64,000 bases of DNA from Fragilaria crotonensis. Its lineage: Eukaryota > Bacillariophyta > Fragilariophyceae > Fragilariales > Fragilariaceae. Below are positions 12,038 through 49,042 of the stretch, piece after piece. Position 1 is the first letter of the stretch, and the number at the start of each line of letters is the position of its first letter. The position numbers and the translations under genes are program-made. The stretch spans positions 1 to 64,000 of the forward strand of contig JAKSYS010000279.1 in NCBI GenBank assembly GCA_022925895.1. Reading direction: 5' to 3'. Under the pieces are notes generated by a model, which saw nothing but the letters and a program-made list of their open reading frames with translations, was not told the DNA's origin and searched no databases.

Positions 12038-12078
12038 CTGACAACAAGAGGCTCCTTCAGCCAGTATTGAGGAGCATA

Positions 12079-14469: not shown

Positions 14470-17465
14470 GTGCCTCACACCATCATTCCAAAGAAGTCCG
14501 ACATGATGCTATGCAAGAACAGACTTAACTCCATTATCACACTGGGATCCGCTGGCAGCAGACGAACGTTCGTCGTGAAGGCTCCTTATCGACATACTCC
14601 GATATCGATACGCCGGTCCTTTCGTAAAACACTTCCAAGCTCAATCTCGCTCAGATACAAAAGCACCGTGGCTGTTACCCAGTGCGACTATGATGAGTTT
14701 TCAATGAAGTTCCAAGGTCATGTCGCGTCAGGTGATGCAAGGATCAAGTTTGACACGCCTGTGGATGAAGCATGGAGGATCAACCTCGGCAGAGGAAATG
14801 TCAACAGATGGTTAAGCGGACCTCGTTCTGACGACTGGTTCACGGGAGTGCCTCCATCTCGTTGTCCTGGTGAGTTTTGTTGAAAAGGAGATGCGTCATC
14901 TTGAAAGCCCATCGATTATCCTTCCGCTAACAGTGCCATTCGCGACCAAATAACCTACACATGACGTAACCCCTTTTACTGCTATTCGCGACCAAAAAAA
15001 ATGAAATACAGGGTTAGATAAGGACGGCACAATACGTTCTTTGCCATTCCCGAACTTGAATGCTGTCACTCGCGACTCAGTCAAAGATTATTTCGACAAC
15101 TCATGGACACTTTTCGAAACACTTTTCGCGGGTCTCAATGGCGAAGAATACTTCTACCGCCCACCTGTCCATGGTCTCCGACATCCCCAAATATTTTACT
15201 ATGGGCACTCTCCTTGTTTGTACATTAATAAGCTAAGAGTGGCCGGAGTCCTGAGAAACCGGTTAACCCTTACTGAGAGCATCTTTGAGATTGGGGTGGA
15301 CGAAATGCTTTGGGATGACATGCACAAGAACGACATGATGTGGCCTACTGTTTCGAAGTTCACGAGTATCGCAAGCGGGTATATGAGGTTATTGTCAATA
15401 CAATCATGACGCATCCATCCTGGATGACAGTCACGGTCCTGTGTCGGTCAATAGGAGCATCCGATGTGGGCCTTGTTCATGGTACGTTATCATACGAATG
15501 CGACATGCATTGCGCGTGACGACGCACTCTACGCCTTGGCCACAGGGATTCGAGCATGAGAGAATTCATTTCGAAACTAGCTCAGTTTTGTTCAGGGAGG
15601 CCCCATACCACCTTGTTCAAACCCCAAAGAGCTGGCCGTCGCTTCACCCTTCTGCCGCAAAGGCAACGCCGTCCACAATGCCCATTGAGGGAGTTGATTA
15701 CCCTCGAAACAAAATGATTACTGTTAATGCCGAGAGTGTCGATCTAGGGAAGCCTGCAGATTTTCCTTCCTACGGATGGGATAACGAATACGGTGAACGT
15801 ACAGTTTCGGTCCCACCCTTTCAGGCCTCCGAGTATATGATCACCAATGGAGAATTCTGGCAGTTTGTTGCTGACGGAGGATACAGAGAACAGCAATTTT
15901 GGTGTGACGACGGCTGGGCATGGAGAACCCATCGAAATTTGAAGTGGCCCTTCTTCTGGGAGCCATTGGGACCTGCAGGATCCCATGAGTACTCGTTGAG
16001 AACGATTTTTAAAATCATATCGATGCCATGGGATTGGCCCGTTGACTGCACATTTTACGAAGCTAAAGCTTTCTGCCGCTGGAAGACGTCGAAAGAGGGA
16101 TCGCCTACATCGAGGCCGTATCGTTTGCTGACAGAAGCGGAGCACCACGTTATCCGGAACAAGGAGCATAGTCTGGACGCGGCACGCAAAGATGTGAATG
16201 CAGACCGAGTCTTGGCCGTCGGTGGTGCGTCATTCGCGGAAGGCCCTTCGGGATCCAACATGAACCTAGCTTTTGCCTCCCAGAACCCTGTGGATTACTT
16301 TAGCCCATCACATACTGGACATCGCGATACAACTGGAAATGCTTGGGAATGGACGGAAGATCACTTCAATCCATTGAAAGGTTTTGAAGTTCATCACGTA
16401 TATGACGACTTCTCGTCTCCTTGTTTCGACGGGAAGCATTCCTTGATTGTCGGGGGTTCATTTATCAGTACAGGCGATGAAGCATCCGTCTTCGCCAGAT
16501 TTCATTTTCGCCCTCATTTCTTGCAGCATTCCGGGTTCCGCCTGGTTGCTTCGGACCATGATGCTCCGGCAACCCACTTGTTTGCTGGACGCTTTGGTGG
16601 TCAACTTGCAGCTCGAGAGGCTGCTTTGGTTCAGGATGACGAAGGTGACAAGCAGTCGAACGACAACGTTTACGAAACAGATGAATCTTTGAACATGTAC
16701 CTGAGTTTGCACTATCCATTGTCTGGTGTTCGAGAGGGCGTATCGCCGATCATTAGTCACCAGCATGCACCCACGCATGGGCTTCGCTTCCCACAACGCG
16801 TTGCCGAGTTGTTGGCTCGCTTAGCTCCTGAGAAGATGGAAAGTGCCTTGATGTGGGCTGTGCAGTTGGTGGCGCCTCGTTCGAAATGGCCAAATCTTTG
16901 ACCACGTTGATGCTTTCGACTTCAGCAATAGCTTCGTTGTCGCAGCAATGCGAATGCAAAAGGCTGAGCAAGTGCGTTTCAAGATACCAATCGAGGCCGA
17001 CCTATTTGAGCAGGTTGAAGCTGCTCACGAGCACGATGTTTCGCAAGAAATTCGTAGTAAGGTGAACTTTTTCCAGGGCGACGCTTGCAGAATTGGAGAA
17101 ATGGCCACGGATGGCCACTTGGGAAAGTACGACGGTGTTATCATGTCAAACCTTTGTGTCGACTCCCAGATCCTTTGGGATGTCTCAACGGTTTGCCTCG
17201 TGTGGTCAACAAAGGAGGAGTTGTGGTACTTGTGACGCCGTTCAGTTGGCTAGAGCAGTTCACTCCACGTAGCAAGTGGCTGGGTGGATTCTATGATCCT
17301 GTATCGAAGGACAAGCTCCGCTCTAAGGATGAGCTCCAGCTGATCATGGAGGAACGAGGCTTTGAAAAGATTCACGAAGAAGAGATGCCTTTGGTAATTC
17401 GTGAGCACCAGCGCAAGTACCAATACATTGTGAGCGAAGCGACGGGCTGGCGTAAACTTGAATAA
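14470..17465 (+). CDS. ovoA: OvoA-type 5-histidylcysteine sulfoxide synthase / thiohistidine methyltransferase
   Basis: OvoA makes ovothiol. Its iron-dependent domains couple cysteine to histidine, and its C-terminal SAM domain methylates the resulting thiohistidine. The order here is canonical. A DinB-like domain (about 15041-15600) contains YFDNSWTLFETLFAGL, HGLRHPQIFYYGH and the iron-ligand motif HERIHFE (HX3HXE). An FGE-sulfatase-like domain (about 15700-16560) contains TGNAWEWTEDHF and HSGFRLV. A class I methyltransferase follows, with DVGCAVGGASFEMA and later GGVVVLVTPFSWLEQFTPRS. Two introns are visible: 14870-15011 and 15482-15545. An N-terminal Arg/Ser-rich extension may target an organelle. 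The frame breaks near 15357, 15430-15470, 16850, 16890 and 17153, each apparently by one base. After correction all motifs join, so sequencing error is likelier than loss. The start at 14470 is tentative. Confidence 0.9.
14870..15011 (+). other. ovoA: Intron 1 of ovoA (142 nt)
   Basis: Donor gtgagt at 14870 and acceptor atacag ending at 15011. Joining the exons turns CPG/stop into CPGLDKDGTIRSLPFPNL, which matches the expected OvoA sequence. Confidence 0.85.
15482..15545 (+). other. ovoA: Intron 2 of ovoA (64 nt)
   Basis: Donor gtacgt at 15482 and acceptor ggccacag ending at 15545. Splicing yields HPMWALFMGFEHERIHFE, which restores the iron-binding motif in frame. Confidence 0.88.
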
Positions 17466-17985
17466 GGTGTACGGAGCTCTCGTTAGAATGTTGGGCTATC
17501 CCCCCCGCGTGCTTTCGAACACAGGTGTCTATTCGTTGCTATTGAAGTCACTGGGTAGAGTGAGAATATCCAGACTTATAAGAGAACCACAGTTAAGGAT
17601 TTGTTTTAGGCATAGCGAAACCACGTTTTCACGTGGTAGAAACGATGGAAGGACGACGCGAGAGCCAACATTCGGGAACGGCGATAGGGTCACCAGGGAT
17701 AGCGGATTGCTTTCTGTCGGCGTGAGCGCAACTTCAAGTGGGTAGAAGGAAGTCATTTTGTCTTGCATTTAACTTTGTGTACGCAGTGGTATCGACCGTT
17801 GCGTACGAGATGTTACCAAAACCACTAGAATAACTAACTCTCGAGTGGACCAGGCTCATAAATAAATGAGGAGCTTGCAGTGACCTATTGCTACTGATGC
17901 AATAACTTGCTTGTGAAGGACAAAGATAGTTCATGCAAAGTATTTCTAGCGTTCACGGTAAGAGTCCTCGGCAAATTTCAAAACC
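17466..17985. other. Convergent 3' intergenic region
   Basis: Between the stop of ovoA and the stop of the phosphate carrier gene on the other strand. Open frames at 17458-17745 and on the opposite strand are short and featureless. It probably holds both 3' UTRs. Confidence 0.5.
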
Positions 17986-19095
17986 TCAATGTGATCCAGT
18001 CGCCGGCAGTCCCAATAATTGTTTGACAATATCGTAGACGACCAACTGTGTAGTGATGATCCCCCGACGTGCACAAATCTGGCCTGTATTCCGACAAAGA
18101 ACTCCGGAATTCCACCACGCCCCAGATTGTGTTGACGACCTTACCGAAGGATCCTGAGTTCCACCCTTATATGTCTCGGTAAGGATCTTCGAATTCAAAG
18201 GTGAGTAAAACGGTTGCGACGTCGTACAATCGCTGAGAACGAGGAACTTTCGTTGGTAAACGTACCATATCTCCAGGCTGAGAAAAGGTGCACGCAAGAA
18301 CAGAAGCAGATGCTGCCGCAGCTACCGAAACAACCCACTTCATGTCGATGTCCGTTCCCTTCAAGAGAGTGTAAAGCATGGCTGCGAAGAAATCGAATGA
18401 AACTTGTTTCGCCATCGTATACGGAACCTGGTGAGAGTTGTTGTAAGGTGAGATATCAATGGAAAGGAGGTTGTAAAAGTGAATATGAAGGGATTCAGTT
18501 CATGAGTTTGACGTTTGACGCACCTGTTTAGTAAGCATGGCGGGGAAGCCACCAAACATTTCCAAGAAGCCTTCATCTTTGATCAACTTTGGGAGTCCTG
18601 ATAGTAAGCCTTTGTCGGCGTAGTCCTTGTCTGTGACAATTCTGATTCTAACAGATTCTGCGGGACATAGAATGAGGGCGGCAACAGCGCCGGCGGCTAT
18701 GCTGGCCAGGATGAAGGCTGTCGGTTGATCCTCAATGACCTGACCAAAATAGGCTTGAGTATCTCATAAATTCCGAACTTGGCTGCGCCTTCAATACCGT
18801 AACCCACTACAGTCGGACCGAGACCGCCGAGCAAAACCCTGGGCCGTCTTTCTTGATAATCTTCGCTGCTGCCGACAGCATTCCATCGTTGTACTCAGTC
18901 GGATCTGCCTGCATCTTGGTCTTGATGACATCGATTGGGGTTGTGATCCCATGTGAATACGCAGCGCAAAACCCCGCCGGCAACAAAATAGCGATAGTCA
19001 ACTGCCAGGCATTGAGAAATGGATGCGCTGATAAAAAGCACGAGCAAGTGGAGATGGGCAATACACACAACCCTCATCGTTTCTACAACACACAA
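17986..19095 (-). CDS. Mitochondrial phosphate carrier (SLC25A3/PiC family)
   Basis: Imports inorganic phosphate across the mitochondrial inner membrane for ATP synthesis. Three carrier repeats are seen in order: the first signature TTPIDVIKTKMQ, the second CPAESVRIRIV with LIKDEGFLEMFGGFPAMLTKQVPYTMAKQ, and the third SQPGDMILTETYKGG, ending ITTQLVVYDIVKQLLG. The segment FPAMLTKQVPYTMAKQ and the PGDM third signature mark phosphate carriers. Two introns are visible (18428-18523 and 18187-18265). The 5' end is uncertain: sequence before DYRYFVAGG may contain another intron. Frame breaks occur at short runs (aaaa 18833-18836 and 18746-18749, both one base short) and at two or more places near 18060-18130. 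With those corrected the product has normal family length. It is convergent with ovoA. Confidence 0.85.
18187..18265 (-). other. Intron in phosphate carrier gene (79 nt)
   Basis: On the minus strand the donor gtacgt follows the codon ATG of PGDM, and the acceptor gaattcgaag precedes ATCCTTACC. The join gives PGDMILTETYKGG, as in the family. Confidence 0.8.
18428..18523 (-). other. Intron in phosphate carrier gene (96 nt)
   Basis: On the minus strand the donor gtgcgt follows AAACAG and the acceptor ctcaccag precedes GTTCCGTATACG. Splicing gives LTKQVPYTMAKQ, a conserved phosphate-carrier block. Confidence 0.88.
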
Positions 19096-20973
19096 AGCAC
19101 AAATAAGAGTTGAGAAATAGGCGAATTGGGGGTTGGGTGTAGAGAGAGTAGTGTTGAGTTCAGTAGTTCCAACTTCCAGCGTCCAACTTAAAAGTACACA
19201 ATACAGTGGCGACGAATGAGTTCAGCGCAATACAACAGCAATGATCAACTATACGCACACGGACATGGATACGCACCAGAATTCCACAACAACACAACTC
19301 AGATGCCGACAAGCTGGTTGATTGTTGATTGGCATGTGGCATCGGGACTTCGGGACCAGGCATCACACGTTTCACATGGATGATGGATGAATCTTCTTCA
19401 TGTTTCCGTACTTGTATTTGTGTACAGTACTACCATCTACTATGTATACGTACTACTACTTGTACTCGACCAAACGGATACAGCACAGTAAAAGGTAGAG
19501 AAGTTACGGTATGCTAACCTATAACCTTTACCTGGTACCTGGTACTAGTACCGTTACACACTGAGTATGAATCGGCGACATACGGTTACGTCATGACGAC
19601 GTCATTTGTGACATCATTAATCCGTACGTTAATCCAGACTCCAGACATATGAGCAATTGAAGAACTGTAGGGTTTCGGGATTTGGGACACCGCACTCTGC
19701 ACGCCAGAATTTTGAATTGAAAATTCTGATGTATACGTATGATTCTCATAATTTAAGAGTTGAGCTTCCTTTTACAATGATGGTATGATGATTTTGTTGC
19801 TATCATCTGTTGCAATGCTGGAGTCCTCTCTGCTGCAGGTGGTACTGAGCCTTGCTCCAATTACGATTGTTGCCTGCAATGATGATCATCAATTAATGAT
19901 GTCACCCAAGGAGTTGCAGGTGATGAGATTCCTCGATGTGCAGCTTGGTAGTAGGTTACTAGCGGCCCTACCGTAGCTAAGCAACAAGCAACTGAGTAAC
20001 ATAACTTACACTGATTCTTGCCCATGATGTACCAAACAGGATGCTGAGATGTCACAACTGCAAGATTCACTGCTTGCACAGATTGACAATGAACAAATCA
20101 ATGAGGCCTACCAATGATGCAGACCAGCATCTTGTCCATTTACTGGTTTCCTGCTGCTCCTCACCATTGAATGAATAACTACTACCTGCAGCAGGGCACA
20201 CCTCTTGCCAGGATGAGGTTGATTTGTTTGAGAATGTGAGAAACAAGTTCTTGTTGAAAACCATTACTAAGTTTGATCCTGCTTACTAGGTAGAGTATTC
20301 AGTTGATTACAAAGAAGATGGAATGAAAACAGCAGAGGTCAGAAGCTTATCACCACTGTACTTTGTGCAGCTTCCCAGCAGTTTGGATGTTGCAACCTGA
20401 AATTGCATAAGCTGAAACTACCTGGCAGGCTCGGATGGATAAAGATGTTTTGCCAACACTAAAGGATGTTTGCCAACATTAAAGTCAATACGATCTTAGC
20501 AACCCTTCAACTGATCGTCGATCCCGACATGCATACTGAAGTCGAGCGAATCCGAATCTTCGGAGCCCCCGCCTTGTGCAATGTGTCTGCCAGCGAAGCT
20601 AATCTTCATGCATACCTCAAATATGAGAATCACCAATCTATTATCCAAAATCAGCCAGTATTTGAATAAACCATTGTGAAACAAAGCAAGCGTGGCCTTC
20701 TTACCCTACACGTTGGCGGATCGGCATGATCGGGAGCATGGCGATGTAAATGCCAGCATACTTCGTCGTGGAACATGCGATACTCTTGCCGACGCTACTC
20801 TACGACTTACGACACGTTGCATCATGAGAAAAAGAATGAAAGAGCAAACCATGGGCCGTCGTGTCCCCTGACATTTGCCACACGAGACCCCTATCAGATG
20901 AAGGGAAATTCGGACTCTTATATCCAAACTGGACTGGGCCTCGCACAGTCTAAGACGAGGGTGGGCCAGTCCA
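19096..20973. other. Intergenic, no recognised gene
   Basis: Short ORFs only. GTAC-rich low-complexity DNA spans about 19400-19560, including ggtacctggtactagtaccg. Near 20931-20972, just downstream of the next gene's stop, an imperfect hairpin (tggactgg...ccagtcca) could shape its 3' end. No RNA gene was recognised. Confidence 0.45.
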
Positions 20974-21678
20974 TTATCTTACTTTTTTAGCAAGAACACG
21001 GGTCCAACTCTCCAGGAGAATGTCGATTTCTTCTCTCATGAGTGTTCCGCGTCCACCCCACACCAACCTGTCCGGAATGTCGCTAAAACCATCACCGACA
21101 TACTTGATAATCTTGAATCCCGATCTCTTGTAGTATTGGACTAGTTTTCGATGCTGCTTTGCTTCATCGTCAATTGCTAGAAACTCGCCTGTCTTGCAAC
21201 CATTTTCTTTGCCGTGAAGCAAGCATAGATAGCCAAGCAATTGACCAACGCCCAACAAAGTACCTCCACCACGAAATTCCCCGGGGTTCTCAATACTCGC
21301 TGTTTTGATCATCTTTTTAAATACCTCCATCTTGTCTAGGTGAAGTACACTACCACCAGGTCGGAGAAATCCTTCGCAATATCCCAATATTTGCGTCTCG
21401 TTATGCTTTGCTCTCGCCAGTGCACGATAACCAGGCCCCAACGTCGAAAGCGACAATACAACTCCTTCTTTGGAGGCGTAGTCTACGAGCTGCTCTCTGC
21501 TCCATACGTGACCGTTCGTTGACGTAAATCTCACTGTCGAGAAGGCGGACCTACGAAAACTCAACGTCTGAGCAACGAACGCATTGCCCGGGGTGAGGAA
21601 AGCGAAAAGAATTAACAGGACGGGAGGCACTGATGATTGTATTCTTTTCATTACTTCCTGACTTCTGGTGGAAGGCAC
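20974..21678 (-). CDS. Plastid-targeted GNAT-like acetyltransferase (putative)
   Basis: A 234-codon intact frame. The N-terminus has a hydrophobic core (PPVLLILFAFLTP) followed by GNAFVAQTLSFRRSAF, a classic signal-peptide/ASAFAP-type junction with F at the transit-peptide start, so plastid import is predicted. The initiator may be Met1 or Met10. The C-terminal half (LGVGQLLGYLCLLHGKENGCKTGEFLAIDDEAKQ, then LVQYYKRSGFKIIKYVGD) has the layout of a GNAT fold: a strand ending in residue clusters for acetyl-CoA, then an E-F-L strand and a Y-Y-x-R-x-G-F helix-turn. I do not see a textbook R/Q-x-x-G-x-G/A motif, so the acetyltransferase call is tentative and the substrate unknown. The gene is divergent from the methyltransferase gene 335 bp away. 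Confidence 0.6.
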   Translation of the reverse strand: MPSTRSQEVMKRIQSSVPPVLLILFAFLTPGNAFVAQTLSFRRSAFSTVRFTSTNGHVWSREQLVDYASKEGVVLSLSTLGPGYRALARAKHNETQILGYCEGFLRPGGSVLHLDKMEVFKKMIKTASIENPGEFRGGGTLLGVGQLLGYLCLLHGKENGCKTGEFLAIDDEAKQHRKLVQYYKRSGFKIIKYVGDGFSDIPDRLVWGGRGTLMREEIDILLESWTRVLAKKVR

Positions 21679-22013
21679 ACGGTCAAGAAATCAATGGGAT
21701 CACGCAAGATGAATACTCCGAGTGCGATATCTGAAGTCCGATTCGTTTAACCTTGTGTCGTCGTGTCAAGTCTTTCCAAACAAGCAGACAACTGATTTTT
21801 GCATGTATGCATACTGCATGTACCCATACATGCAGAGTACAAGTACTACTGTACCAGTAGTACGTGGACGGAGAACGTCTGATTTCTATGTATCATACTG
21901 GTACTGTACCAAAAAATCTCTGATCATGCACAGCAACTGCATATCGTCGCTGACGAGAATGAAGCGGAGTGTCAGAGTGTCAGGCATGGTCTTCGGCAGC
22001 GAACACGTTTGCA
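21679..22013. promoter_or_regulatory. Shared divergent intergenic region
   Basis: 335 bp separate the start codons of two divergent plastid-protein genes. It contains GTAC-type palindromic words (cagtagtacgtgg, agtacaagtactactgtacc). The head-to-head arrangement suggests a bidirectional promoter region. No defined motif is claimed. Confidence 0.35.
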
Positions 22014-22871
22014 ATGAAGTTCAGTGTGTCGTTGTTGTTTATCTTCTGCAACCTGACTGCGGAAGCTCTAGCTTTTAACTTTCCTGTGCATGCTTCGCGT
22101 CGCAACGTCGGCCTTCATGCAGCAGTGATATCAGCCTCCGTTCCGACTCGCCTTTCACGAGAAGATGGTCTCAAACTGGTTGACACCTGCTTGCTCCCAT
22201 CGGAAGAATATGGGCAAAGAATCACAGCTGCTAAGGACGCGCAAGGGTTTGACCCTACAAAGCTGATCATTGGAGACGATCCCCGACTTTGTTTCGCATA
22301 CGGAGAATTTCCAACACATTCGACTGATGAACTGGTAGACCTGGCGTTGCGTTACATTCCAGAATTCAATGGCACAGTCGAAATGCTAGATTTGGGATCT
22401 GGATGTGGACGACTTGCTTGCTACCTTGCTCTTACCCGAGGGACCGAAAGAAACCCGTGGTCTGTACATGGCATTGAAATATGCAACGTCTTGACGGATG
22501 TTGCATCCCGGGCTATTGCTGTCGGGGTCAGAAACAAGTTATTTGAGAAGAGGGATGAATCAACTCTTGGGCGAAATACTCTTGCCTTGCATTTGGGTCC
22601 TGCAGAGCAACTCCCCGATGTGATAGCTAGAGCGCATCTGATATTCTCCTACTGCTCTACTTTCAAGACCGACGGTTTTTCGGAAGAACTGGGCGCAATG
22701 ATGCTAGACAAACAGTGGAGTGAATTCTTGTCAAGGTCATGCCGAAATGGCTGTGTAGTTATCACTACAGATAGAGCACTAGACCCACGATACGGATGGA
22801 AAATTCTTGATCAACTTGATGTTGACAACCGAGAAGTGATGGAAGCACCGTACATTCAAGTACTGCGATAG
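22014..22871 (+). CDS. Plastid-targeted class I SAM-dependent methyltransferase (putative)
   Basis: The start at 22014 is preferred over 21969 because it places MKFSVSLLFIFCNLTAEA directly as a signal peptide, followed by LAFNFPVHASRRN, an ASAFAP-like junction with a Ser/Arg-rich transit segment. The catalytic part has motif I VEMLDLGSGCGRLACYLAL, an acidic motif II in VHGIEICN, and a later LIFSYCSTF strand corresponding to motif IV. The layout (an amphipathic lead-in, GxGxGR glycine loop, GIE acceptor) resembles the DOT1-like/ribosomal-type Rossmann methyltransferases. The substrate is not evident. The frame is intact at 285 codons. No neighbours hint at a pathway. Confidence 0.7.
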   Translation: MKFSVSLLFIFCNLTAEALAFNFPVHASRRNVGLHAAVISASVPTRLSREDGLKLVDTCLLPSEEYGQRITAAKDAQGFDPTKLIIGDDPRLCFAYGEFPTHSTDELVDLALRYIPEFNGTVEMLDLGSGCGRLACYLALTRGTERNPWSVHGIEICNVLTDVASRAIAVGVRNKLFEKRDESTLGRNTLALHLGPAEQLPDVIARAHLIFSYCSTFKTDGFSEELGAMMLDKQWSEFLSRSCRNGCVVITTDRALDPRYGWKILDQLDVDNREVMEAPYIQVLR

Positions 22872-24454
22872 TGGACGGATCATTCGTGTCTTGCTCTTAT
22901 GCGTTGAGAAGACATGTCTTGCCCGTGAGGAAGTTGTATTTTGCTGCTTTTGATGATAGCCAATGGCTTAGCAAAGCGGGTCAGCGAATGCACAAGTCGG
23001 TCAGCAGTGACATCGGATATTTACCTAACCCGTGCTCACGCTCAATGTTGATCAAGCCGTGTCTTCCTAGTAGCCAAATTTTCTTTCTCCATCATTGTTT
23101 TGCCTAAACGAACCATGGTTAAAACCTGTCTTCAAAATTCAAAATGGGTCCGGAGTGCCATGTAGAACGACAATAATTGCAATCAACCGCCCCGAAATGC
23201 AGGTGCACGCAGGGCACGGTGAAGTATACTTAAACCATACTACCTAATAGGCCAAAGTTTTAACTTTATACTAGCTACGAGCAGTTAGTTAACTTGCTGC
23301 ACCCTGATTTCGTAGTTAAAGTTAACTGCAGATACTACTAAATCTTCATGTCTAGTTATCAGTATATTTGAATCTGGGTAGTTAGTTGTAGTATATACTA
23401 CAACAGTAACACTAATACAGTAGCACAGATAATGCACCAAAACAGCAGTGGACAGTGGTGGTAGACTGTACGTAGATTCGTTCGATGCCTTCTTTAACGT
23501 TCGATTTCTTCTAGTTGATTTTACCGTTATCGACCGTCTATACTCAATACTGGCTGTGCCAATATATCGCAAGAATCAACGATGAATCACGTAAACTCTA
23601 CGTGTCCAACTCCTTAGTCAGAACACTAATTTCTAGATTCCCGCCCTTGGCAGTTAACTAGTACTACTACTACTACCCCCCAACGGAATAGTTTTGTACC
23701 TCGTCGTAAAGTAGTTAGTTAGTATATACCCAGTGTTGTAGTAGTTAGTTAGTTAAGTGTAGCGTGGAAGTAGTTAGTTAGTTAACTATCCCAAATTTGG
23801 CCTCAGTTAGTTGCTGCAGTTAACTAACTGCAGTATACTATGTAGTAGTAACTTATCACCGTGCCCTGTGCACGGGTGCACTGTACCAAAAAAAAAAAGA
23901 ACCACTGTCGTATGTATGCATACACATGTATGAAAGGGGGGGATGTCCAGAATCATAGGTACATAGTACGGTAGGTAGTAGTATGTTATATTGTTCTATC
24001 GATAGTACCCCGAGTACTGCGAACTGTATCATAGTAGTACAAGAGTAAAGTTGCTGCATCAAGATCTCTTGCATATATCATACTCCCTCATATTGCATAA
24101 ATATTGCATATCCCTCGGAATCGTTGGAATATGTTCTATATGTACGTACATATTGGTACTCGTACATGCGCAGTCTACGACGCTCTATGAGATGTGGCAT
24201 ATGGCATATGTCATATGTGGCATATCGGCATATCGCATTTTGGCGCGGGAAGTCTTGATCCCGCGAAGGACCGAAACACGACACGCGCCATGCGACACCT
24301 CCGCCAATTCGCATTCCAATCCCCCCCTACATACTCCATTTGCATACGGAGTATTAATCTACCAATCATCTTCAACTGAAATCTGACACAAAAACACCAT
24401 CGACTTTGGCTCGTGACAGCTGGCAACTCCGAGCGCTCAACTGTTCCAGGGACT
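22872..24454. other. Intergenic, TAGTTAGT-rich low-complexity DNA
   Basis: Between 23220 and 23860 the sequence is packed with agttagtt/gttaactaac words and the self-complementary form gttagttaac, plus (tac)n near 23660. Around 24190-24245 lies a catatggcatatg-type palindromic cluster. Short ORFs here are not genes. The CHI-like gene's promoter is at the right end. Confidence 0.6.
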
Positions 24455-25098
24455 ATGTGTGTAATGTTTTCTGGCAATAGAGTCATGTTTGGTCTTCTTG
24501 CTCTTATTTTCTGTGCCATGGCGTGTTCCGCTGCTGCTGCTGAAACCGGAATGGAGTACAGATCATCCTTTGTACTCGAAGGAATCCACTTGGAGGAGTT
24601 GAAGGTAGTGAATGGAGTGACATTGGTTCGCAATGGCGAAGGCGTCCGACAGTTCAGTCTTTTTTGGCATGAATCTTAGGATTTACGTTGCTGGTTTCTG
24701 GACGGCATCTCAAATGCAAAGCATCGAAGAAGTGCTAGCGTGCAGGCAGCCAAAGCAAATGGATTTCACCTTCCTTCGATCGGTTGACCAGTCACGGGTG
24801 ACTGGGGCTTGGCAACATCAACTCGAAGAGAGCGTCACATACAAATATGATGGTTACGATGCTGACCGTGATGCTTTCATCAATGCTTTTGGGCCGATCG
24901 AGAATGGAGGGACACAGTCCGTGCTTTTTGCTCGGAAATGAGACGCATGTGATAGACCAAGGGGTATTAAAGATGAAAATTAATGGGGACCAGTTTCAAA
25001 CGGCCTTCCTCAGCATGTGGTTCGGAGAACAGGCAGTAACACCTGAGCTCAAGTCAGGTCTTCTTGGTATGAACCGACTGAAGGCAGTTGTGCTGTAG
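24455..25098 (+). CDS. Chalcone-isomerase-like protein (Chalcone_3 family), secretory signal
   Basis: The protein begins with a signal peptide (MFGLLALIFCAMACSAAAAETG) and then follows the CHI-like fold: VVNGVTLVRNGEGVR, NLRIYVAGFW, MDFTFLRSVDQSRVTGAW, KMKINGDQFQTAFLSMWFGE and LKSGLLGM. The NGxGxR / YVAGxW / FLRxV / WxGxxxxxxxLKxxLLG pattern is that of CHI-like proteins of PF16036 type, which in bacteria and algae do not necessarily make flavonoids and may bind fatty acids. Two one-base insertions break it: the T6 run at 24660-24665 and the T5 run at 24926-24930. Removing one T from each joins all motifs. Upstream start codons at 24413 and 24464 are alternatives. It is convergent with the kinase gene 99 bp away. 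Confidence 0.72.
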
Positions 25099-25196
25099 TC
25101 CATGAAGACAATCAGTAAATTACATAAAGTGTACTGTACACTTGTAACATCACCTTTATATCTCTATACATGTATTTGGTCGCTATAGCGACAAGA

Positions 25197-26075: not shown

Positions 26076-26503
26076 CGCGGATGCACGAACCGAAAATACA
26101 CGACACGCAACGGCTTCGTTTCCATGTACATTGTACTGGCATCTGGTGGTAATCTGATTCGTTTTTGTGATGACTCAGTTCTCAGTTGGCATGTCGACTC
26201 TGCAAGTGACCAAAATTTTCGGTGGTACTCCGTACTGTACCTGGTACATGTACGGAGCCTAATTGGAAATCAACGTGCCAAAATCCAAAATGCACCTTGA
26301 AACTTGAAATAGTACTCGTACTGTACATACTTCTACTAGTACTAATCACATTTGGTCGTGTGTGATGTGTGATGTCGCGGATGTGGCGCCGGATTGCTCG
26401 GAATTGCACGATGGGCATTCCGAGAAAGCAGACGTCACAATGAGACAAGTCAGGGGCGGAGTCCGCACGGTACTGTACGAGCACCATACTTGTAATGGTA
26501 CTA
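26076..26503. other. Intergenic upstream of kinase gene and left of the pogo-like element
   Basis: GTAC-rich sequence (ccgtactgtacctggtacatgtacgg and similar near 26230-26250). Short ORFs on both strands lack any recognisable domain. Confidence 0.45.
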
Positions 26504-32679: not shown

Positions 32680-32877
32680 ATCCCATTCTCGATGGAGGCA
32701 GATGTGCCTAACTCTGCTTCAATTTCCTACATCGCACTGCCGTTCAACTCCGAAACGCACACCCTTCACTCCACTATCAACATGCAGTAGTTGTAGCTAA
32801 TCAACTATCTTAATTATCATGTTGCAATTGGGTGAAAGGAGACATTTTTGTCTGTACGAACACATGGAAAGCGTTCA

Positions 32878-36435: not shown

Positions 36436-36695
36436 TGATTCGAGAGTACGATGTACTGGGTACTTGTCGTACTGAGTAGTCTGTAGTATGCCTTCTACAA
36501 GTACCCTACTCGAAGTACAACTGCAAAGGTTCTTCCATCCAGTACATGGTACTAGTAATACATGTACTCGAGTACCCCGAGTACATTGTACGTACTACTC
36601 GAGTGTTGTTAGCGGATGTCGTTGGAGGATAACCTCCAGTCTCCGGTCTCCTGGCCATCACTGTCCTCGCTCTCCTTTCTATCGTCTCTTCTGCC

Positions 36696-39600: not shown

Positions 39601-42135
39601 ACCGAAGCCGAAACCAATACCCAAATCGTTTAGTAAATTGTCAGCACAAGAAAGACGAGAATTTCTCGCCATCCCGGAGAATGAAAAGGCCCTCGTTGAT
39701 GAGCTTTTGAATAGGAAGCTACAGGGGGTTCGATGCGAAGTGTGCCATACAATTGAAGACGAGGGAAAGAATCTAACCAGGTGCGTTTGCTGTGGTATAG
39801 TATTCTGCGACTCTTGCAAACTGCCTTTCGACGACGAAGATATTGAGGCGAAGCAGTTCACATGCCAAGTGTGCAAGTACCTTGAGGAAGCGAAGGCAAC
39901 AGGAACAGACGTAGAAAAGCCGAAGTGCATTCTCTGTTTTCAGCCAGGAGGGTGGTTGCGGATGGCAAGAGGCACCCTATGAGGAAATGGCCTCTAAACC
40001 GGCAGAGAGAGTACGAAAAACCCTCTTTGAGAAAAGATTGTGGGTGCATGCTCTATGTGCAATGTAAGTTCAATTGCGAAGGGGTGGTTCTCTGTGCACA
40101 CTCCCCATCGACTCATCAGTTCTTCAGCTGGCAGCACCCCACACTCGTAACTGACATGGCTCGCAAAGAGGTAAACTTGAGCGATGCAATCATGACTCAC
40201 GGAAAAGGCTTCATTCTCGGCATGAATCGTTGCGAGCTTTGCGGCCAAAAGGACGGCTTAAAGATGAAATGCTCCTACTCAAACTGCAGGCAACGAGGTC
40301 ATAGATCAAAGGCGTCGCATGCCCATGTGACTTGCGCCCGACAGGCAGGATTCGAGGTCGACACTGGCATGTCAGGAGGCGACATAAGTTTTCACATCAA
40401 TTGCTATCGTCATGTGAAGTGCGAATTCGCTTTCAGAGCAAGACTAGAAGATCTAATAGAGTTCGAAAAGCTCAGAGTAGGCAAGAAAATGGACGACACG
40501 AAGAGCATGAGCATTAGTCACGCATCGCGGCTTCTAAACTCGGCGATTGTTGTCATGAACTATCTTGGCTGGGCCTGGCGATGGACTGAGTGGTGGGTCG
40601 AATATGGTTCTAATTGGGAACCGCTAATTGAGCCTGGAGAGGACGAAAAGAAAATGTCGAAGGAACAACTCAAGATTGTAGATTCCACCCCAGAAAGTCG
40701 TTGTGCAGATGCGAGACGTTGCCGGTTGGCCGCTTTCGGCGCTGCTTTGAGAAATCGATCGTACGATGAAGTGGAAAGCGGGCCGACAGTCATTTTGGAA
40801 CGTGCGCTTCGCGCAGTGCTAAACACTCCAAGTTTGGTTGGTCCGTTGACGAATTTGGAGATTGATTTCTTTGTTCAATGGCTAGGTATTGCATACAGGT
40901 CGAAGTCGAGGCTCCTGGGGTTGGGAAGCGAAAAGATTGTTGTGGACGAGACTGCGCCTTCATCTCTTCACGAGGATGACAAATCCCCAAAGTTTGTTCT
41001 TGGCGACCGTCGTTTACCTGGGGAACAAGTTCTTCCGGAGGGAGAGGTGTTCGAAACGGATGTCGCTGAGATTGACGATTTCTTGAAACCCGAGCGCCTC
41101 GAGGATGGAATGCTGTATTCCGAATTTTTGAAAACTAAAAAATGTTGAAACAGAAACCAGCGAAGCAGAAAGCTCCAGTAGAAGCGCATCTGTCGTGAAG
41201 AATGATCCTAACCGTTTAAAAGGAAGCACTCCGATCTTCATGGGTTGGACGACATCTGCGACACAGAGCCGCCGAGAAAAGGGTCGTCCCCGAATGCTGC
41301 TCCATCCGAAGTCGCTGCACCTGTTGTGAATGAATTAGAGGAGGACAATGCATTAAAGGAGCAAGGAATTTCAGCATCTCCGAACGAGCCTCGAAAAGTG
41401 AAGAACGACGATGAGGCACGTGCTGGGGATGCCACAACATGAGTCCCTTCACTCTGTGGAGAGGCGTGCGATTCGGAAGCGCAAGACATTATCGTTTCCT
41501 GACCGTAGGAGCGCACGAACGCTGATCATTCGAGGAAAGAGGCTGACGAATCTAATGCTGTAGGTTCGAAGTTGGATGCGAGTGAATTCCTAGAGTCGAA
41601 TACCTTGAGTGCCGGCCTGGATTCATTCGACGAAGATAGCGCGTACGAAGAGAGTACAAGCCCCAAGAAGTGCCGCCTTAAACAACCTAAGAGGTCAAAA
41701 GTGGAGGTTATGGCGACGGCCATGCAGTCACGGGACAACTCTGTGTCGTCAAGACCTCGACGAAATACTGTAGGTAGGCACAGCAATGAAGATGGCGACC
41801 TCAATAAGGACAAAGAGACCAGAAATATCGAGTCACCTGTCCCTGCGAAGGCGAAGGGCCCCTTACCGAATGCATCCTACGTGATACCTCGAAAGGAGCG
41901 AGCGAAGTCGTCGCTACCTGAGGAAGGAGGCTCGGCGGAGAACGACGCCGACCCTGACGATACTGATCCCCTTTCTTCACTTAGAATTCCACGCAAAAAG
42001 AAGGCTTTTGTGGAGAATGCGAGCGACAAAGATGATTGTCTGGAGCCGGAACTTGGCCGGAGTTCTCCGCAGAAGCGCGGACGATACCGTGGTAAGTTGG
42101 AGGCTGCCAAATTTGTCCTGCAAGGAGTGGAGTAG
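36696..42135 (+). CDS. Large multi-PHD-finger chromatin protein
   Basis: PHD and extended PHD (ePHD) fingers read histone tails and are found in histone-modifying complexes. Here a roughly 730-residue N-terminal part with basic and low-complexity segments is followed by PHD1 (VCEICGDGEVTPDNQ ... CYGIEKVPEGDYYCIACRYF), ePHD1 (CELCPRKQGAF, WVHVLCAKW, CQLCQGDRGSFNQC, WIHVTCARAFGRCEVI), a third finger (CEVCHTIEDEGKNLTRCVCC ... CQVC), ePHD2 (CILCFQPGGWLRMA ... CELCGQKDGLKMKC, HAHVTCARQAGFE) and a charged tail to 42135. The PHD-ePHD pair resembles the BRPF/JADE PZP module; no catalytic domain is seen. One intron (40064-40127) is clear. Single-base breaks lie at T7 38944-38950, A6 39394-39399, near 39975 and 40020, A6 41137-41142 and near 41245 and 41440. 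The start at 36696 is the first good ATG. The 3' end overlaps a minus-strand ORF. Confidence 0.8.
40064..40127 (+). other. Intron in the PHD gene (64 nt)
   Basis: Donor gtaagt at 40064 and acceptor ttcttcag ending at 40127. Joining gives LWVHALCAIWQHPTLVTD, matching the expected ePHD sequence between the histidine and the next conserved region. Confidence 0.82.
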
Positions 42136-43911
42136 ACTCTAGTGTGGTTCTGCATTCCCACAACTTCGTTACCCTGGTGATGAATGACCTAGAGGAACAG
42201 CCGCGTTTGACGATGTCAATAGCTGTTGCAAGTTGACTCCCTCCAGGAAAGAAAGTCAGCCATGCCGATGACAACAACATTCCACAGATCACATAATCCC
42301 GATTAGGTGTTTCAATCTTGATGCCCCTTGTGAAATATATGGCGTGTGGATCGTTACATTTTGAGCTAAGTATCCGGTCTTTCCGGTGGGTCCTGAAAGA
42401 TTCCTGATCTAGCCAAGTGAACTTTGAGTCCGAGTGTGAACAACCTAATATCAAGCAAAGCGTGAATCCGCCACTATGGAGCCTGTAAACGATGACGAAA
42501 GGTTTCGAAAAATGTATACACGAACTATGGTAATGGGAGCGATGGGGAGGGCTCAGTCGCAGATGAGCGTAGTGCTCATCAAAGAGCTCACCGGTTCCGT
42601 CGATAAAATAGTACCGTAAACTACTGTAGGCAGTAGTACTCGCTTGTAAGAAGTGGACGCTGCCCTTGGTGGCTGTACCAAAGTAGTGTATCTCCTTGGG
42701 AAGAGCCAGCAATCGTATGCCTTGATTGAAAAGCGACAGTACTTGCGAAAACGAGCTGCCGGATGCGTACACAATATCAGATTCAACAAATAGGTTGATC
42801 GTCTCAAGAATGTTCGTGCCCGACTTCCATAAGCATTTCACGCTGTCAAACTCCTTACATAGTTCTGTTGCGACTTGGGTAGCATGCGAGGCTCCGAGGG
42901 CCATTCTCCGGCCACATTATGGGACAGACTCTCACGCATCCTGGCGCCTGATGAACCACCAAAGTTGGCCCGAAAATAGACCCAGTAGATGTGAACTGTG
43001 TGACCAGGACCATGTTCAAGTTCCGCGATGTCCCTCGTAGCGGTCAGAACGTTGCGCCAATATGATTCCGACGCCTCGAGAACCAAGTCACCAACTCGAA
43101 GATGAAACGCTGCGCTCAAAACCTTGATTGGACTATCAAAAACATCGTGACCACGATCGCTCTCTGCAGTCAAATTTGTGGCACTAGCCGTCGTCGTGTT
43201 TCCGTCTGTCGAGAAGACGTTTTCGATTTCTTTTTTCTGCTGATACCACGGATATATGACGTCTTCCACCAACCTATTGTCGCGCAGAAAGCTATGGACA
43301 AAAGCAAGTACATCGCCATGTCCCAAAGGCATTTTTTCCTGTTGGATTTTGGGCCAAACCTCTCCCGAGTCAGGATAAATCCATTGGACGACCGTATCGT
43401 TGCCAGCAAGAAGTGTGATGTCTTGTTTTTCCAAGTCTTTGATTGTGGTGTGTTCCAAGGTACGGTTCGGCAACATTGTTCCGCAATCCGGAAAGACTGG
43501 TTCGAGGAGCAGATGATACAGATCCATGTCATTGCCGAAGTGATCAGTGTCGAAGCAAAACAGTACCCTCGTGTCATGGCGTACCAAGACTTCCGTCATT
43601 TTGTGACCCATTCCCAACATGAAATTGACCTTGGGGGCGACTCGTAATCGATATTGAGGACACGAGAAGAGATCGATTCGCGTTGATGCTCTGCTCACTG
43701 AGTGAAACGAGGTTGTCGCCTCTGCCATTGGATCGATTTGATACACGGTTGCTGTTGACTGCGATAAGGAAGTCGGATAAATCTCCTTAATATCAGCATC
43801 AGCGAGCTGAATTTCAGAGAATCGAAAAGAATGGAGGCAACTAACCAAAATGGCCGTTGATATTGCCACAAATGCATGAGAAAGAACCGAGAGTTCGAAG
43901 CCTCGACCCAT
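41981..43911 (-). CDS. Putative type II membrane glycosyltransferase (HxRxGD group)
   Basis: The N-terminus (FELSVLSHAFVAISTAILVSC) is a membrane anchor, as in Golgi type II enzymes. The luminal part contains FHLRVGDLVLEASESYW, a HxRxGD-like motif typical of the fucosyltransferase group (NodZ/FUT8, O-FucT, GT11). Later comes NLFVESDIVYASGSSFSQVLSLF, which matches the D-x-x-x-(G/A)-S-S-F-S motif of the same group, then YFG and RYYFIDGTGELFDEHY. The frame breaks once at about 42905-42925 by one or two bases. The donor sugar is not provable from sequence. The last part of the ORF (42540 to 41981) overlaps the PHD gene's end and lacks family features, so the real stop is probably nearer 42550. 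Four Asn-x-(S/T) sites are visible. Confidence 0.6.
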
Positions 43912-44014
43912 GATGAAGGACCATTACTCTGTAAGTCGATATGGAACGTGGTTGCAAATCAAAACATGAGTTGCTCATCAATTGGCCACAGCTCTGCGAA
44001 ACAACTTATAGCAA

Positions 44015-44460
44015 ACTAGTGGGTACCTCACATTTGATCGGAGTGTCTACTACAGGAAACTGGACGTACAGTACCCCCAACCTGGTCGTACTCCGTACCA
44101 CTACTTTTTTCCCCTACAGTATGCAGTACCATGGTACCAACGTAGGAAACGTCATGAAGTACAGTACCAGGTAGTTATCATGCCCCAGTATTGCAGTTCA
44201 TCGCACGGTATATTTTACAGTAGCATTTGTCAAGCAACCTGTTCACAGCAAATTCAATGAGTATTCCATCCAGTAACTTTGAATTCGTACAGTATTGTAG
44301 TTCAGTAACGTAACACACTGTCGTTTCAACATAAATTACCGTCCGTTTATGTACTGTAGACCTGTAGTACATGTAATCCACGTAACAGTGCAACAGTACC
44401 CCAGAGTGGTCATACTCCGTAACAGACGGACGCACGCACGCACACAATTAATTTATAATA
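44015..44460. repeat. Dispersed 446-bp repeat, copy A
   Basis: This begins actagtgggtacctcacatt and ends with the acgcacgcacgcacacaattaa / tttataata terminus. It is nearly identical to 53872-54316 (copy B), with about six differences by eye, such as cgtcatgaag versus cttcatgaag and tccagtaac versus tctagtaac. The last 22 bp are tandemly duplicated at 44448-44490. It contains no coding capacity beyond spurious ORFs that appear in both copies. Confidence 0.93.
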
Positions 44461-45208
44461 TAGTAGGATTAATTTATAATATAGTAGGATAGGATATGAC
44501 TATCTACATGTATGTACTGTTTGGATGGCATATACTCCGAGTATGTATGACAGTGTATGATATCTACAGGGTACAAGTATAAACATAGTAGTGGGAGCCA
44601 CAAAATCAATCGACACCAAGAAATCACCGTACAGTCATCTAAGGCCGGTGCTTTCAGCCAACAAAATGTCTCGCAAAACAAACCGTAGTAGTCTATTCCA
44701 GGGATTGGAAGTAAATAACCACCGGTACCGGTAACCAAATACCGATGGTATTATACTGTACCACTACTGTGATTTTTAAAATGCCCAATAACTGGTTACC
44801 TGCGAGTGGCAATATACCAACCAGTAACCAAGACCCTTGGTTATTTTCTACTGAGTTTAGTCGGTAGTATTTTGAATTCCGGTGTTCGGGAATACCAGTC
44901 GGAATTTCCATAAATGTTCTGTCCTGCATCAGAGTGTTTACGGTTCATTTCTGTACTGTAGTACTGAAGTTTACTGTTACTGTAGTGTTTTTACTACCAT
45001 TATACCTACCGGACGAAACCAATGGAACCGAGTAAGTACTGCGATTCGAAAAATGAAGAGAAGTTATATTCATACCGGACTGAAGGATTTTTCAATACCA
45101 AAATACCTACCAGTGCAACAGCACAATACCATTCTACCTACTGGAGGACTGTAATACCAGATTCAACGTGGGACAGTATTATTTTTCCAATCCCTGGTCT
45201 ATTCTGTG
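44461..45208. other. Intergenic between repeat A and Harbinger-type element
   Basis: Low-complexity and palindromic words (ccggtaccggtaacc near 44720). The rest is featureless. Short ORFs are not genes. Confidence 0.45.
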
Positions 45209-45468
45209 AAAATATCGTCCTTGCAGCCACAAAAAGTCCTCGCAAACGGGCTTGATCGCTTTGTGCATCCGGGTTTTTAACAAACCGTTTTCGAGCGTTT
45301 GTGAACAGCCGGATTTTTTACAAACCCCATCACTAAAGTATTCCTTAATAGGGTTTTCGAGATGCATCGGATGATGTTTTGTAGAATTGCAACCTTCCAA
45401 TGACAACGGCATTGGCGGCGACTTCATCATATTGCATCTATAAACATAGCATCAACCCACATAGAAGG

Positions 45469-47234
45469 ATGGATACTAATGATGCTCTGAACGCGTTCTA
45501 TGAAGGTTTATTGGATGAAGATGGATATTTGGGCAATGAGGACGATTGTATCGATGATGATGGCGCGGTCGACGACGACAAGCTTGAAGAATACATGGCA
45601 CAGCAGGCGGCAGCAGATGAGAGGAAAAGAAACGTTCTGCTAACGATGATGGGTATGGTTGAGCTTGAGGACGAGGAACAGAAAGAATTTGACGCGATAG
45701 ACCTCAGGCGTCATCGTGAGAGATTTCGCGGTCGCCGGAAAAAAAGACGAAAGATGAAGAGGCAGTGGTATTGCGACCCAACCACTGGAAAAATGAGTAG
45801 AGTGTGCCCCCAAATGAGCAGCTGGTGGATTGACTACGTGGAGAATCCTGAACCGGACTGCCCTTTTTGGAATAAGGTTTTCCGACAGAGGTTCAGGTTG
45901 CCGTATGTGTCATACATACAGGTGTTGGAATGGGTTTGTGGTGACGATTGCGATGGCTTGTTTGACCGATGGCGGACAGAAGCCGATCATGGCTTCACTG
46001 GAAGGCAAAACAACAAGAAAGTTTCGCCCCTTGAACTTCTCCTTTTAGGCTCACTTCGGTACTTGGGCAGGGGGTGGACTTTTGATGACATCGAAGAGGC
46101 CACCAAAGTAAGTCGCGATGTCCATCGCTGTTTTTTTCACGCTTTCACGACGTATGGTGCGAAATTTTTGTACCCTCGCTTCGTGCAAATGCCTCAGAGT
46201 ACGGCCGACTTGCGAAGTTGCGAGTCCGAGTATGCGGTGGCGGGTTTCCTGGATGTATCGGGAGTACCGACGCGACGCACATTCCGTTGGACAAGGTCAC
46301 TGCTGCGTTTCGACAAGCGCACATTGGCTACAAAATGGGGTCAGATGCAACAACAAGGACGTATAATCTGACGGTCAATCATCGCCGTCAGATACTACAT
46401 ACTACCACAGGCCACCCAGGAAGGTGGAACGACAAGGCTCTCATTCGTTTCGATTCGTTCATGTCCGATCTACGTGATGGTGCTTTCGATGAGATGGTTG
46501 ATTTCACGTTGAAAAGGGGAAGAAAGGACGATACTGGTACTGTGACAACTGGCGAGGACGAAGTAGAGGACGTGACGATCAAGGGTGCATACGTCATCGT
46601 CGACAATGGGTACCTCCGATGGCCGACGACGATTCCTCCAATGAAAGACACGTGCAATCGATCGGAGCTACGCTTCTCCCAGTGGCTAGAAGCACTTAGA
46701 AAAGACGTAGAGTGCACGTTTGGCATCCTTAAAGGTCGTTGGAGGATACTAAAGACGGGCATTCGCGTCCACAATACTGAAGCAAGCGACAACATCTGGA
46801 TGACTTGCTGTGCTTTGCACAACCACTTGTTGGATGTCGACGGATTGTCGCACAAATGGGACGATGGTGTCCCATCGAGCTACGAGAACGACGATGGAGA
46901 GTTCCAAGACGAGGATATCCCTGCTGCTATTCGACGTCTTGTAGATCCTATTGGGAATGAAGGTCATAGATTGCGAACGTTCGATAGTTTGCGATTCGGA
47001 TTTCAGGCGAATCACGAGGATGATGCACGTGATTGTGACGACGACGATGACGACGACGACGGCGATAATGATGCTCACTTGATTCGATCGGGAACAAGCG
47101 TGAAGTCGATTGAATTTAATCGATTCAGGGCGATGTTGATTGAGAATTTCAACATCGCCTTTCATGAGGACAAGTTGAAGTGGCCGAAGCGCTTCGCAAA
47201 AAATACGAAGCCAGTTCCTATCCTTCCTGGGTAG
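45469..47234 (+). CDS. PIF/Harbinger-type transposase (DDE_4 family)
   Basis: Start at ATG 45469 (MDTNDALNAFYEG) after a short upstream frame. The N-terminal half carries an acidic region and WWIDYVENPEPDCPFWNKVF, then FTGRQNNKKVSPLELLLLGS. The catalytic centre reads GCIGSTDATHIPLDKV (first D), then GAYVIVDNGYLRWPTTIPPM (second D) and RKDVECTFGILKGRWRILK (E), followed by ALHNHLLD, the full order for Harbinger transposases. One base is missing in the GGG at 46242-46244, splitting the frame in two. A long acidic (DDDDDD) tail closes the protein. Otherwise complete. The enzyme excises and reinserts the element, in this superfamily usually with a DNA-binding partner. Confidence 0.88.
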
Positions 47235-47307
47235 TACATCTAATCAATTACGTAATATATATTTGTTGCTTTACTAATTTCATTGCTATCTAGTAGTAGT
47301 ACTATCG

Positions 47308-49042
47308 TCAGTTGTCCTCCTCGTCAGAATCGTAGTTGCCATCGCGAATCAATTGTTGATTCACAACAGTTTGCGTGCTAAAACACGCGTTGCACCACCA
47401 AACATTTTCGAGCTCTCGCTGACCACAACACAACGAGCAAACACACTTCTTGCACTTGCGGCACGAGTGATTTGATGGTGTATTGCATTCAATACACCAT
47501 CCTTCGTTGACGATCGTATGCATCGCCGCGGCCGCCGCCGGAGTTACATCAACAACGTCATCCTCATCGTCATCGGCCGAATCCGCAGAGGAGGATTGAT
47601 TGTTGTTATCACTTCTAGCAATCGTTGTCGCCGCATCCGATGAAGACGACGTTGCAAGAATCTCCAAGCTTCGTTCCTTGAGCATGTCGCTGTGTCGACG
47701 ACATTCGTCACTTTGCAACCCGTCGAGCTTTTCTTCGAGGGACGCGATTTCTATTTCAAGCGCATCACGTTTGTTGATCAAAGCCTCACCAGGCTTCTTC
47801 TTATGTTTCGCAAATCGATCGAGCTCTCGCAGAATCGAATCCTCGTTCCGACGACGCGCAGTCAACTTGTCACGAACGCTTCTAATCATGTATTGTGCGT
47901 TCTTCTGCCTTTCCTTTTCAAGGAATCGGCGTTCAAATATTGCAACGTCTTGGCAAGAATCAACTTGCTGGACGAATCGACTAACGGTGCAGGCACAGGC
48001 AGCACTTCATCCTCAGTGACGCGACGCTTCCTTCCTCGACGGTTATCGACACTCGCCGCACATTCTGCAATCATCAACTTGCGCATCTGCGCACGAGACG
48101 CTACGTTTCTGCCGACCGACGCATTTTTTTTTGAGGTCGCCGAACGAATCTGATTGCATGCAAGCACTATTGTGGATTGGTATGTGCCCCCATAGGGCCC
48201 ACGCAAGAAAGCCGACACCACACCGAAAGAACGTCTTATCTGGGTACCGGTCCGCCTCGTCTGAATCTTCGCTCGAGTTGGCAAGTATGCTTGGTGTATC
48301 ATTCTGCTCGTTGTCGTCCTCGCCCAAGAATCCAACATCTCCTCCTCGTGCTCGTCCGTTTGCCTTCTCCCCTTTGACGACGTTTCTATTGGTGGCGACG
48401 ACGACAACAGAATCTATCTTCTCCGCTTCCGCACGATCGCATTCCTTGCCCATTTCGATGAGGCACCACAATATATAGTCCTCCCAGTTCGTTCCGGATG
48501 GAAACTTTCCATCTCTATACGGCGAACCTTTTCTCGTTACAATCGCCATCATCTTCTTGCAATTGCACAAGACCGTCTTGGCATTGCGATGAAGCGTGCG
48601 GCCCGAAATCTTCTCTCCAACCGAAAGCAGTGACTTTTGCGACAGTATCGCCTTATCAATCGAACCCTCACCAACGTAGATAAAGAGCTTCTTGTGGCGG
48701 TGTAAAAAAAGCTGGAATCGAAAGAATCACTTCTCCAGTGGATGAAGTTGGCCCTCCTGCGGCCGCATGTACCGACTGCGTGTAGAGCCCCTTGAATTTG
48801 TTCAAGCCGAGCAAAAACTGATCGTCGTACGTGATCAAGTTTGGGTCGGCGCCATTCGTACCTTCTCCATAGAAGATGGAAGTCATCTTGTTTTCGATCG
48901 CGCTCTCCCCCAGAGACCCTCCTCGCCGGATCAGAGAAGGCGAATCATAGCAGGCATACGCAATGAGTGCCTGTATCTCTTTTTGGAGTCCGCCCGATAT
49001 GTTGGTCGACCGTTTCGACCGGTTTTTTGTGGATTTGCTCAT
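47308..49042 (-). CDS. Harbinger-element partner protein with C-terminal Cys-rich finger
   Basis: This convergent gene inside the Harbinger-type element is read in three frames joined by one-base breaks, one of them in the T9 run 48124-48132 (A9 on this strand). In order it has an N-terminal part (LQKEIQALIAYACYDSPSLI ... ILSIPAFF), a middle region with WEDYILWCLIEMGKECDRAEAE and acidic linkers, a basic/coiled-coil region (FERRFLEKERQKNAQYM, SILRELDRFAKHKKK, EIASLEEKLDGLQSDE), and a C-terminal finger: CIECNTPSNHSCRKCKKCVC, then CCGQ...WWCNACF. It is not the classical Myb-like partner, so the role is inferred from position. No other family match recognised. Confidence 0.55.

What the first reader, a model, noticed from the sequence alone, without database searches (positions are those of the whole stretch)
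14470..49042. Single-base homopolymer breaks across conserved genes suggest assembly error, not gene loss
In OvoA, the phosphate carrier, the CHI-like gene, the PHD gene, the pogo transposase, the Harbinger transposase and its partner, the frame breaks that could be localised mostly sit in a homopolymer (for example T6 24660-24665, T5 24926-24930, T7 38944-38950, A6 39394-39399, A6 41137-41142, T9 48124-48132; also one base missing in GGG 46242-46244). Changing the run length by one joins conserved family motifs on both sides each time. Insertions and deletions both occur, in host and transposon genes. Yet about six host frames (GNAT-like, methyltransferase, kinase, PAM68-like, carrier-like, PPR) are intact, so the errors cluster. 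Real pseudogenes would show mixed stops and missense changes as well.
Basis: partly seen in the sequence, partly recalled or inferred. Interest (0 to 1): 0.75.

Follow-up and report, generated by a model that had tools for sequence, protein, structure and literature searches.

The report
Nanopore assembly errors in diatom haplotigs
The broken genes in this stretch of a diatom genome are most likely sequencing and assembly mistakes, because a second copy of the region in the same assembly has several of them whole while being wrong in other genes, so this draft is unsafe for inferring gene loss.

Summary
The window is contig C202 of an 881-contig assembly; contig C45 carries the same region. 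Over 46,841 aligned columns they differ by 39 mismatches but 232 indels, 210 of them of 1-2 bases. Breaks are reciprocal: a carrier, the CHI-like gene, an unknown gene and the main part of OvoA are broken in the window only, while two of the six frames called intact are broken in C45. Small indels are nearly as dense in coding as in non-coding DNA and cluster strongly. The two arms of the plastid inverted repeat show the same spectrum: 23 indels and 1 mismatch in 10 kb. Contig count and length match Fragilaria crotonensis SAG 28.96, a nanopore/Canu assembly polished with Pilon before Redundans. A likely cause is that short reads prefer whichever near-identical copy is already correct; broken genes without a present partner show this is not the whole story. 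A known kind of artefact, useful to know.

The parts
5236..60322 (.). Region also present on contig C45 (reversed), interrupted by insertions
   Evidence: Alignments at about 97-99.8% identity
14461..17462 (+). OvoA gene; main part (from 15005) broken in the window, single frame in C45; one 2-base event in the first exon is charged to C45
   Evidence: FGE-sulfatase and methyltransferase domains, aligned with solved OvoA 8khq, frame test
18503..19080 (-). Mitochondrial carrier gene (part), broken in the window at 3 of 3 polarised sites
   Evidence: Mito_carr in the C45 frame, frame test
20977..21690 (-).
   Evidence: no Pfam match at 0.01
21963..22868 (+).
   Evidence: no Pfam match at 0.01
24358..25095 (+). 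Chalcone-isomerase-like gene, broken in the window including the listed T6 and T5 runs, open in C45
   Evidence: Chalcone_3 in the C45 frame, frame test
25200..26174 (-). Kinase frame (PRK family), no difference between contigs
27447..29407 (+). Unknown frame, 654 aa in C45, broken in the window at 3 of 3 sites
   Evidence: no Pfam match for the part scanned
30356..31189 (+). PAM68-like frame, no difference between contigs
   Evidence: DUF3464
31741..32676 (+). Carrier-like frame, open in the window, broken in C45 (5 sites charged to C45, 5 undecided)
   Evidence: Mito_carr, frame test
32881..34848 (-). PPR frame, no difference between contigs
   Evidence: PPR repeats
36633..42092 (+). PHD-finger gene, broken in both contigs at different places; includes listed T7, A6 and A6 runs
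   Evidence: PHD domains; frames alternate between contigs
41880..43923 (-).
   Evidence: no Pfam match for the C45 frame
46089..47231 (+). Harbinger-type transposase frame; open in the window, apparently through two cancelling differences; broken in C45
   Evidence: DDE_Tnp_4, copies compared, frame test
47311..49108 (-).
   Evidence: no Pfam match for the C45 frame

Best explanation
The frame breaks are consensus errors of a nanopore assembly, not gene loss. Shown: two contigs carry the same region, differ mainly by 1-2 base indels, and keep the reading frame at complementary places; the two plastid repeat arms show the same. Inferred cause: the raw nanopore consensus had indels throughout, and short-read polishing was done while both copies were present, so short reads aligned to whichever copy was already correct at a site and left the wrong copy uncorrected. 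Patches of clustered deletions in each contig probably mark stretches of poor long-read consensus. The confidence given is for error rather than gene loss; I put the polishing-competition cause at about 0.55.
For: 39 mismatches against 232 indels in 46,841 columns. Listed runs differ 6 of 6 and the seventh site in 4 of 4 other copies. Of 74 indels in genes, the window is at fault in 32, C45 in 29, 13 undecided. 3.0 small indels per kb in coding against 3.7 in non-coding DNA; strong clustering. Plastid repeat arms: 23 indels, 1 mismatch, with dnaK and pheT in one frame in one arm and split in the other. Genome of the same contig number and length made with R9.4.1 nanopore reads, Canu, Pilon on Bowtie2 alignments, then Redundans. 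The competition effect is described for repeats in PMC8812927 (passages).
Against: No reads were examined. The duplicate chaperonin pair C257/C485 has 11 mismatches against 6 indels. Broken chaperonins C12 and C862 have no partner in the present assembly, and plastid groEL breaks are partly shared by both arms while unique plastid DNA shows about four apparent breaks in 20 kb; so read competition cannot be the only cause. Frame-test verdicts are not proof: one, at 46241, is contradicted by other copies.
Confidence: 0.95

Rival explanations
1. The contigs are real haplotypes and the indels are real allelic mutations, so each haplotype has lost different genes.
For: The contigs do differ by transposon-like insertions, so they are probably true haplotypes.
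Against: Few substitutions accompany the indels; coding DNA is hardly spared; 3 of 74 events in genes are multiples of three; the same spectrum occurs between plastid repeat arms.
Confidence: 0.03
2. Residual errors come only from poor local long-read consensus or coverage; competition between copies during polishing plays no part.
For: Single-copy chaperonins are broken too; errors lie in patches with one sign; some plastid breaks are shared by both arms.
Against: Plastid repeat arms look worse than unique plastid DNA (partly by eye); 14 of 14 gene intervals have no break shared by both contigs, though these were chosen from open frames and few shared errors would be expected anyway.
Confidence: 0.4
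3. A mutator strain (faulty mismatch repair) accumulates real homopolymer indels.
For: Difference rate rises with run length.
Against: 102 of 168 single-base differences lie in runs of 3 or less; errors are patchy with runs of one sign; the plastid shows the same.
Confidence: 0.01
4. Programmed frameshifting or RNA editing restores the frames.
For: Conserved domains lie on both sides of some breaks.
Against: The other copy of the same gene needs no shift at that place.
Confidence: 0.005

Closest known systems
Residual indels of nanopore assemblies that survive short-read polishing in repeats (PMC8812927; passages seen)
   Same: Homopolymer-rich indels; errors left where one near-identical copy is right and the other wrong
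   Different: Described there for bacterial repeats; here seen between two diatom contigs and between plastid repeat arms
Gene-fragmenting errors in long-read assemblies of small genomes (Kastor, PMC12007338; start of abstract in search listing)
   Same: Conserved genes appear as pseudogenes because of indels
   Different: That method compares with a reference; here the evidence is a second copy inside the same assembly
Haplotype-duplicated contigs left after incomplete purging (mentioned as a cause of duplication in PMC12159174; passage)
   Same: Two contigs for one region in a draft meant to be non-redundant
   Different: Here the pair differs more by indel noise than by true point variants

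Membership tests
Long-read consensus indel artefact | Indels far exceed substitutions between copies of the same locus | tested here: met
   232 against 39; plastid arms 23 against 1; C430/C238 18 and 27 against 1 and 3, but C257/C485 6 against 11
Long-read consensus indel artefact | Enrichment in homopolymers | tested here: met
   66 of 168 single-base differences in runs of 4 or more, which are 546 of 35,142 aligned runs
Long-read consensus indel artefact | Accurate reads show another length | not testable with these tools
   No reads held
Polishing failure between near-identical copies | Errors complementary: one copy right where the other is wrong | tested here: met
   No shared break in 14 of 14 intervals, intervals chosen from open frames; groEL in the plastid is a counter-example
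Polishing failure between near-identical copies | Unique sequence is clean | tested here: inconclusive
   C138 whole and without a partner, but C12 and C862 broken without a present partner; a partner may have been purged after polishing
Real pseudogenes or allelic gene loss | Indels and substitutions both accumulate, and coding DNA of working genes is spared | tested here: not met
   3.0 against 3.7 small indels per kb, no significance test made; 39 mismatches in 46,841 columns

The most novel reading that the evidence does not exclude
With the artefacts set aside, the two haplotypes differ by few point changes (22 isolated mismatches in 46.8 kb) but by five gaps or replacements over 500 bp, three of them with matching inverted ends and short target repeats and lying on either haplotype. 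The strain may be a near-clonal diatom in which transposon insertion outpaces point mutation between homologues. Loss of true variants during consensus making or polishing is not excluded.
Probability: 0.3. Interest if true: 0.45.

Novelty: not a real feature. Interest (0 to 1): 0.25.

Why it matters
[quoted passage not shown] In a sample of chaperone families, 9 of 34 nuclear loci carry a frame break by my count. If most of these are errors, claims of gene loss, gene counts and the reported 81% completeness need care. Comparing duplicate contigs and plastid repeat arms inside one assembly needs no reads and can be tried on other drafts.

Tried and rejected
Real allelic loss, a mutator strain, and frameshifting or editing were weighed and rejected (see rivals). 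Using single-copy against duplicated chaperonins to test read competition did not decide the matter: single-copy genes are broken too, and Redundans ran after polishing, so lack of a partner now does not show there was none then. The window has no Rfam match at gathering threshold and no tRNA by ARAGORN with bacterial settings. A paper search for '881 contigs' with 'diatom' gave nothing. A search for this species with 'frameshift' gave one paper, in which the frameshift passage is about cloning a sequence in a Phaeodactylum study, not this draft (passages). I saw no published note of these errors in those searches or in the passages read; this is not a full literature check.

Left out before counts: alignment pieces under 3,000 bases and window 5,236-9,044 were not in the indel count. 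Events of 3 or more bases (22 of 232) were left out of the clustering and density tests. First exon of OvoA, 45385-46100 and 47311-49108 were left out of the shared-break test. The chaperone tally was made by hand from the tables and omits gaps of more than 30 bases and in-frame stops, such as those in C225 and C108:429437-431131.

Full report
What was claimed.

A second copy exists. The window is bases 1-64000 of contig C202 (73,272 bases) in an assembly of 62,107,879 bases in 881 contigs. Window 5,236-60,322 is present again on contig C45, reversed, with interruptions. Over six long alignment pieces from window 9,045 on there are 46,841 columns with a base in both, 39 mismatches and 232 indel events: 168 of one base, 42 of two, 22 longer. 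Only 22 mismatches lie more than 12 bases from an indel.

The listed sites. All six listed homopolymers differ by one base in C45. Of 155 aligned runs of five or more, 26 differ, so six of six is unlikely by blind choice (P about 1.3e-5). At the seventh site the window lacks one base beside the GGG, as four of four other copies show (on C45, C228, C548 and C42). In the same stretch the T-run is 7 long in the window and 8, 7, 6 and 6 in those copies. Against C548, whose frame is open throughout, the window's two differences cancel, so its frame looks whole while about 35 codons are probably misread (inference).

Both copies are wrong, in different places. Within 16 gene intervals I asked which contig keeps an open frame across each of 74 indels: the window was at fault in 32, C45 in 29, and 13 were undecided. 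Of the six listed runs, five were charged to the window and T9 was undecided. The main part of OvoA, a mitochondrial carrier, the CHI-like gene and an unknown gene are open in C45 and broken in the window; one 2-base event in OvoA's first exon is charged to C45. The methyltransferase-like and carrier-like frames are open in the window and broken in C45. The PHD gene and the pogo-like frame are broken in both at different places. GNAT, kinase, PAM68 and PPR frames show no difference. In 14 of 14 intervals tested no point is broken in both; 12 are spanned by one contig, pogo needs two segments and the 5.4 kb PHD gene four alternating ones. The intervals were chosen from open frames, so this test is partly circular. 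One verdict, at 46241, is contradicted by the other copies. The OvoA frame of C45 aligns in two domains with solved OvoA 8khq; the second domain spans three of the window's break sites.

Error, not decay. In 14,461-49,108 small indels number 71 in 23,406 coding bases (3.0 per kb) and 35 in 9,430 non-coding bases (3.7 per kb); I made no significance test. Three of 74 events in genes are multiples of three. Indels cluster (index 3.3), with tracts of 3.7 and 2.6 kb free of 1-2 base events, and signs run in blocks: 38 runs against 98 expected. Polarised single-base errors are mainly deletions (20 in the window, 19 in C45) with fewer insertions (7 and 4, one of the 4 being the contradicted verdict); the window insertions include the listed T6, T5, T7 and first A6. 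If shared equally, the rate is about 2.2 small errors per kb per copy (my arithmetic).

A control in the plastid. Contig C881 is the plastid: it carries rbcL and sufB, and dnaK, groEL and pheT in the repeat. The two arms of its inverted repeat, compared over 10 kb, differ by 1 mismatch and 23 indels, all in runs of three or more in the longer arm. dnaK and pheT lie in one frame in one arm and are split in the other; groEL is broken in both, partly at the same places. By eye, 20 kb of single-copy plastid DNA shows about four apparent breaks (gene names recalled). The same kind of error thus occurs in nucleus and organelle, and unique plastid DNA is better but not clean.

Genome-wide. In the chaperone searches I counted as a break two matches consecutive in the profile, in different frames, overlapping or at most 30 bases apart. 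This gives 5 of 12 nuclear loci for PF00118, 3 of 17 for PF00012 and 1 of 5 for PF00183: 9 of 34, counted by hand, weak and partial loci included. The duplicate pair C430/C238 shows the indel excess (18 and 27 events against 1 and 3 mismatches in two overlapping stretches); C257/C485 does not (6 against 11).

Which assembly. The Fragilaria crotonensis SAG 28.96 paper (PMC9476933; part 1 of 2 of the text seen, all sections but the end of the references) reports 61.85 Mb of nuclear DNA in 879 contigs. Here C880 (107,979 bases, mitochondrial by an nad1-like frame) and C881 (150,396 bases) leave 61,849,504 bases in 879 contigs. The match is an inference from size and number; no named record was compared. 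The paper used R9.4.1 nanopore reads, Canu, Pilon on Bowtie2 alignments, and then Redundans to remove redundant contigs.

Mechanism. PMC8812927 (passages) states that when one repeat instance has an error and another has not, short reads align to the correct one and leave the error uncovered. That fits complementary errors here, as polishing is listed before removal of redundant contigs. Against it as sole cause: two broken chaperonins, C12 and C862, have no partner now, and some plastid breaks are shared. Uneven long-read consensus must contribute.

Verdict. The breaks are artefacts with high confidence; the polishing cause is somewhat more likely than not and unproved. Interest is modest: the kind of error is known, but the draft is cited as reference-quality (PMC12718438, passage).

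Noticed in passing
window 14165, 19538, 23210-23867, 44043-45196, 53872-56378: Five gaps or replacements over 500 bp separate the contigs. Two insertions in C45 (869 and 943 bp) and one in the window (658 bp) have matching inverted ends and short flanking repeats, as DNA transposons do; the other two were not examined for ends.
   Followed up: partly
window 60322-64000; contig C620: The match to C45 stops at 60,322 in a stretch repeated on several contigs. C620 matches both this stretch (98%) and the C45 flank (99%), so C202 may carry a large insertion here and C620 may continue it.
   Followed up: partly
window 19410, 23927, 24320, 26285: Differences of 7 bases between the contigs that look by eye like tandem duplications; these may be real variants rather than errors.
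   Followed up: no
window 56379-60322: Identity to C45 falls to 97.3% with 98 gap positions in 4,035 columns, worse than elsewhere.
   Followed up: no
genome-wide, from window 46089-47231: 124 matches to the Harbinger-type transposase were listed, several at 90-99% identity: a large and partly young family.
   Followed up: no
window 35794-36440: A short repeat with direct and inverted units that recurs at 85-95% identity on many contigs.
   Followed up: no
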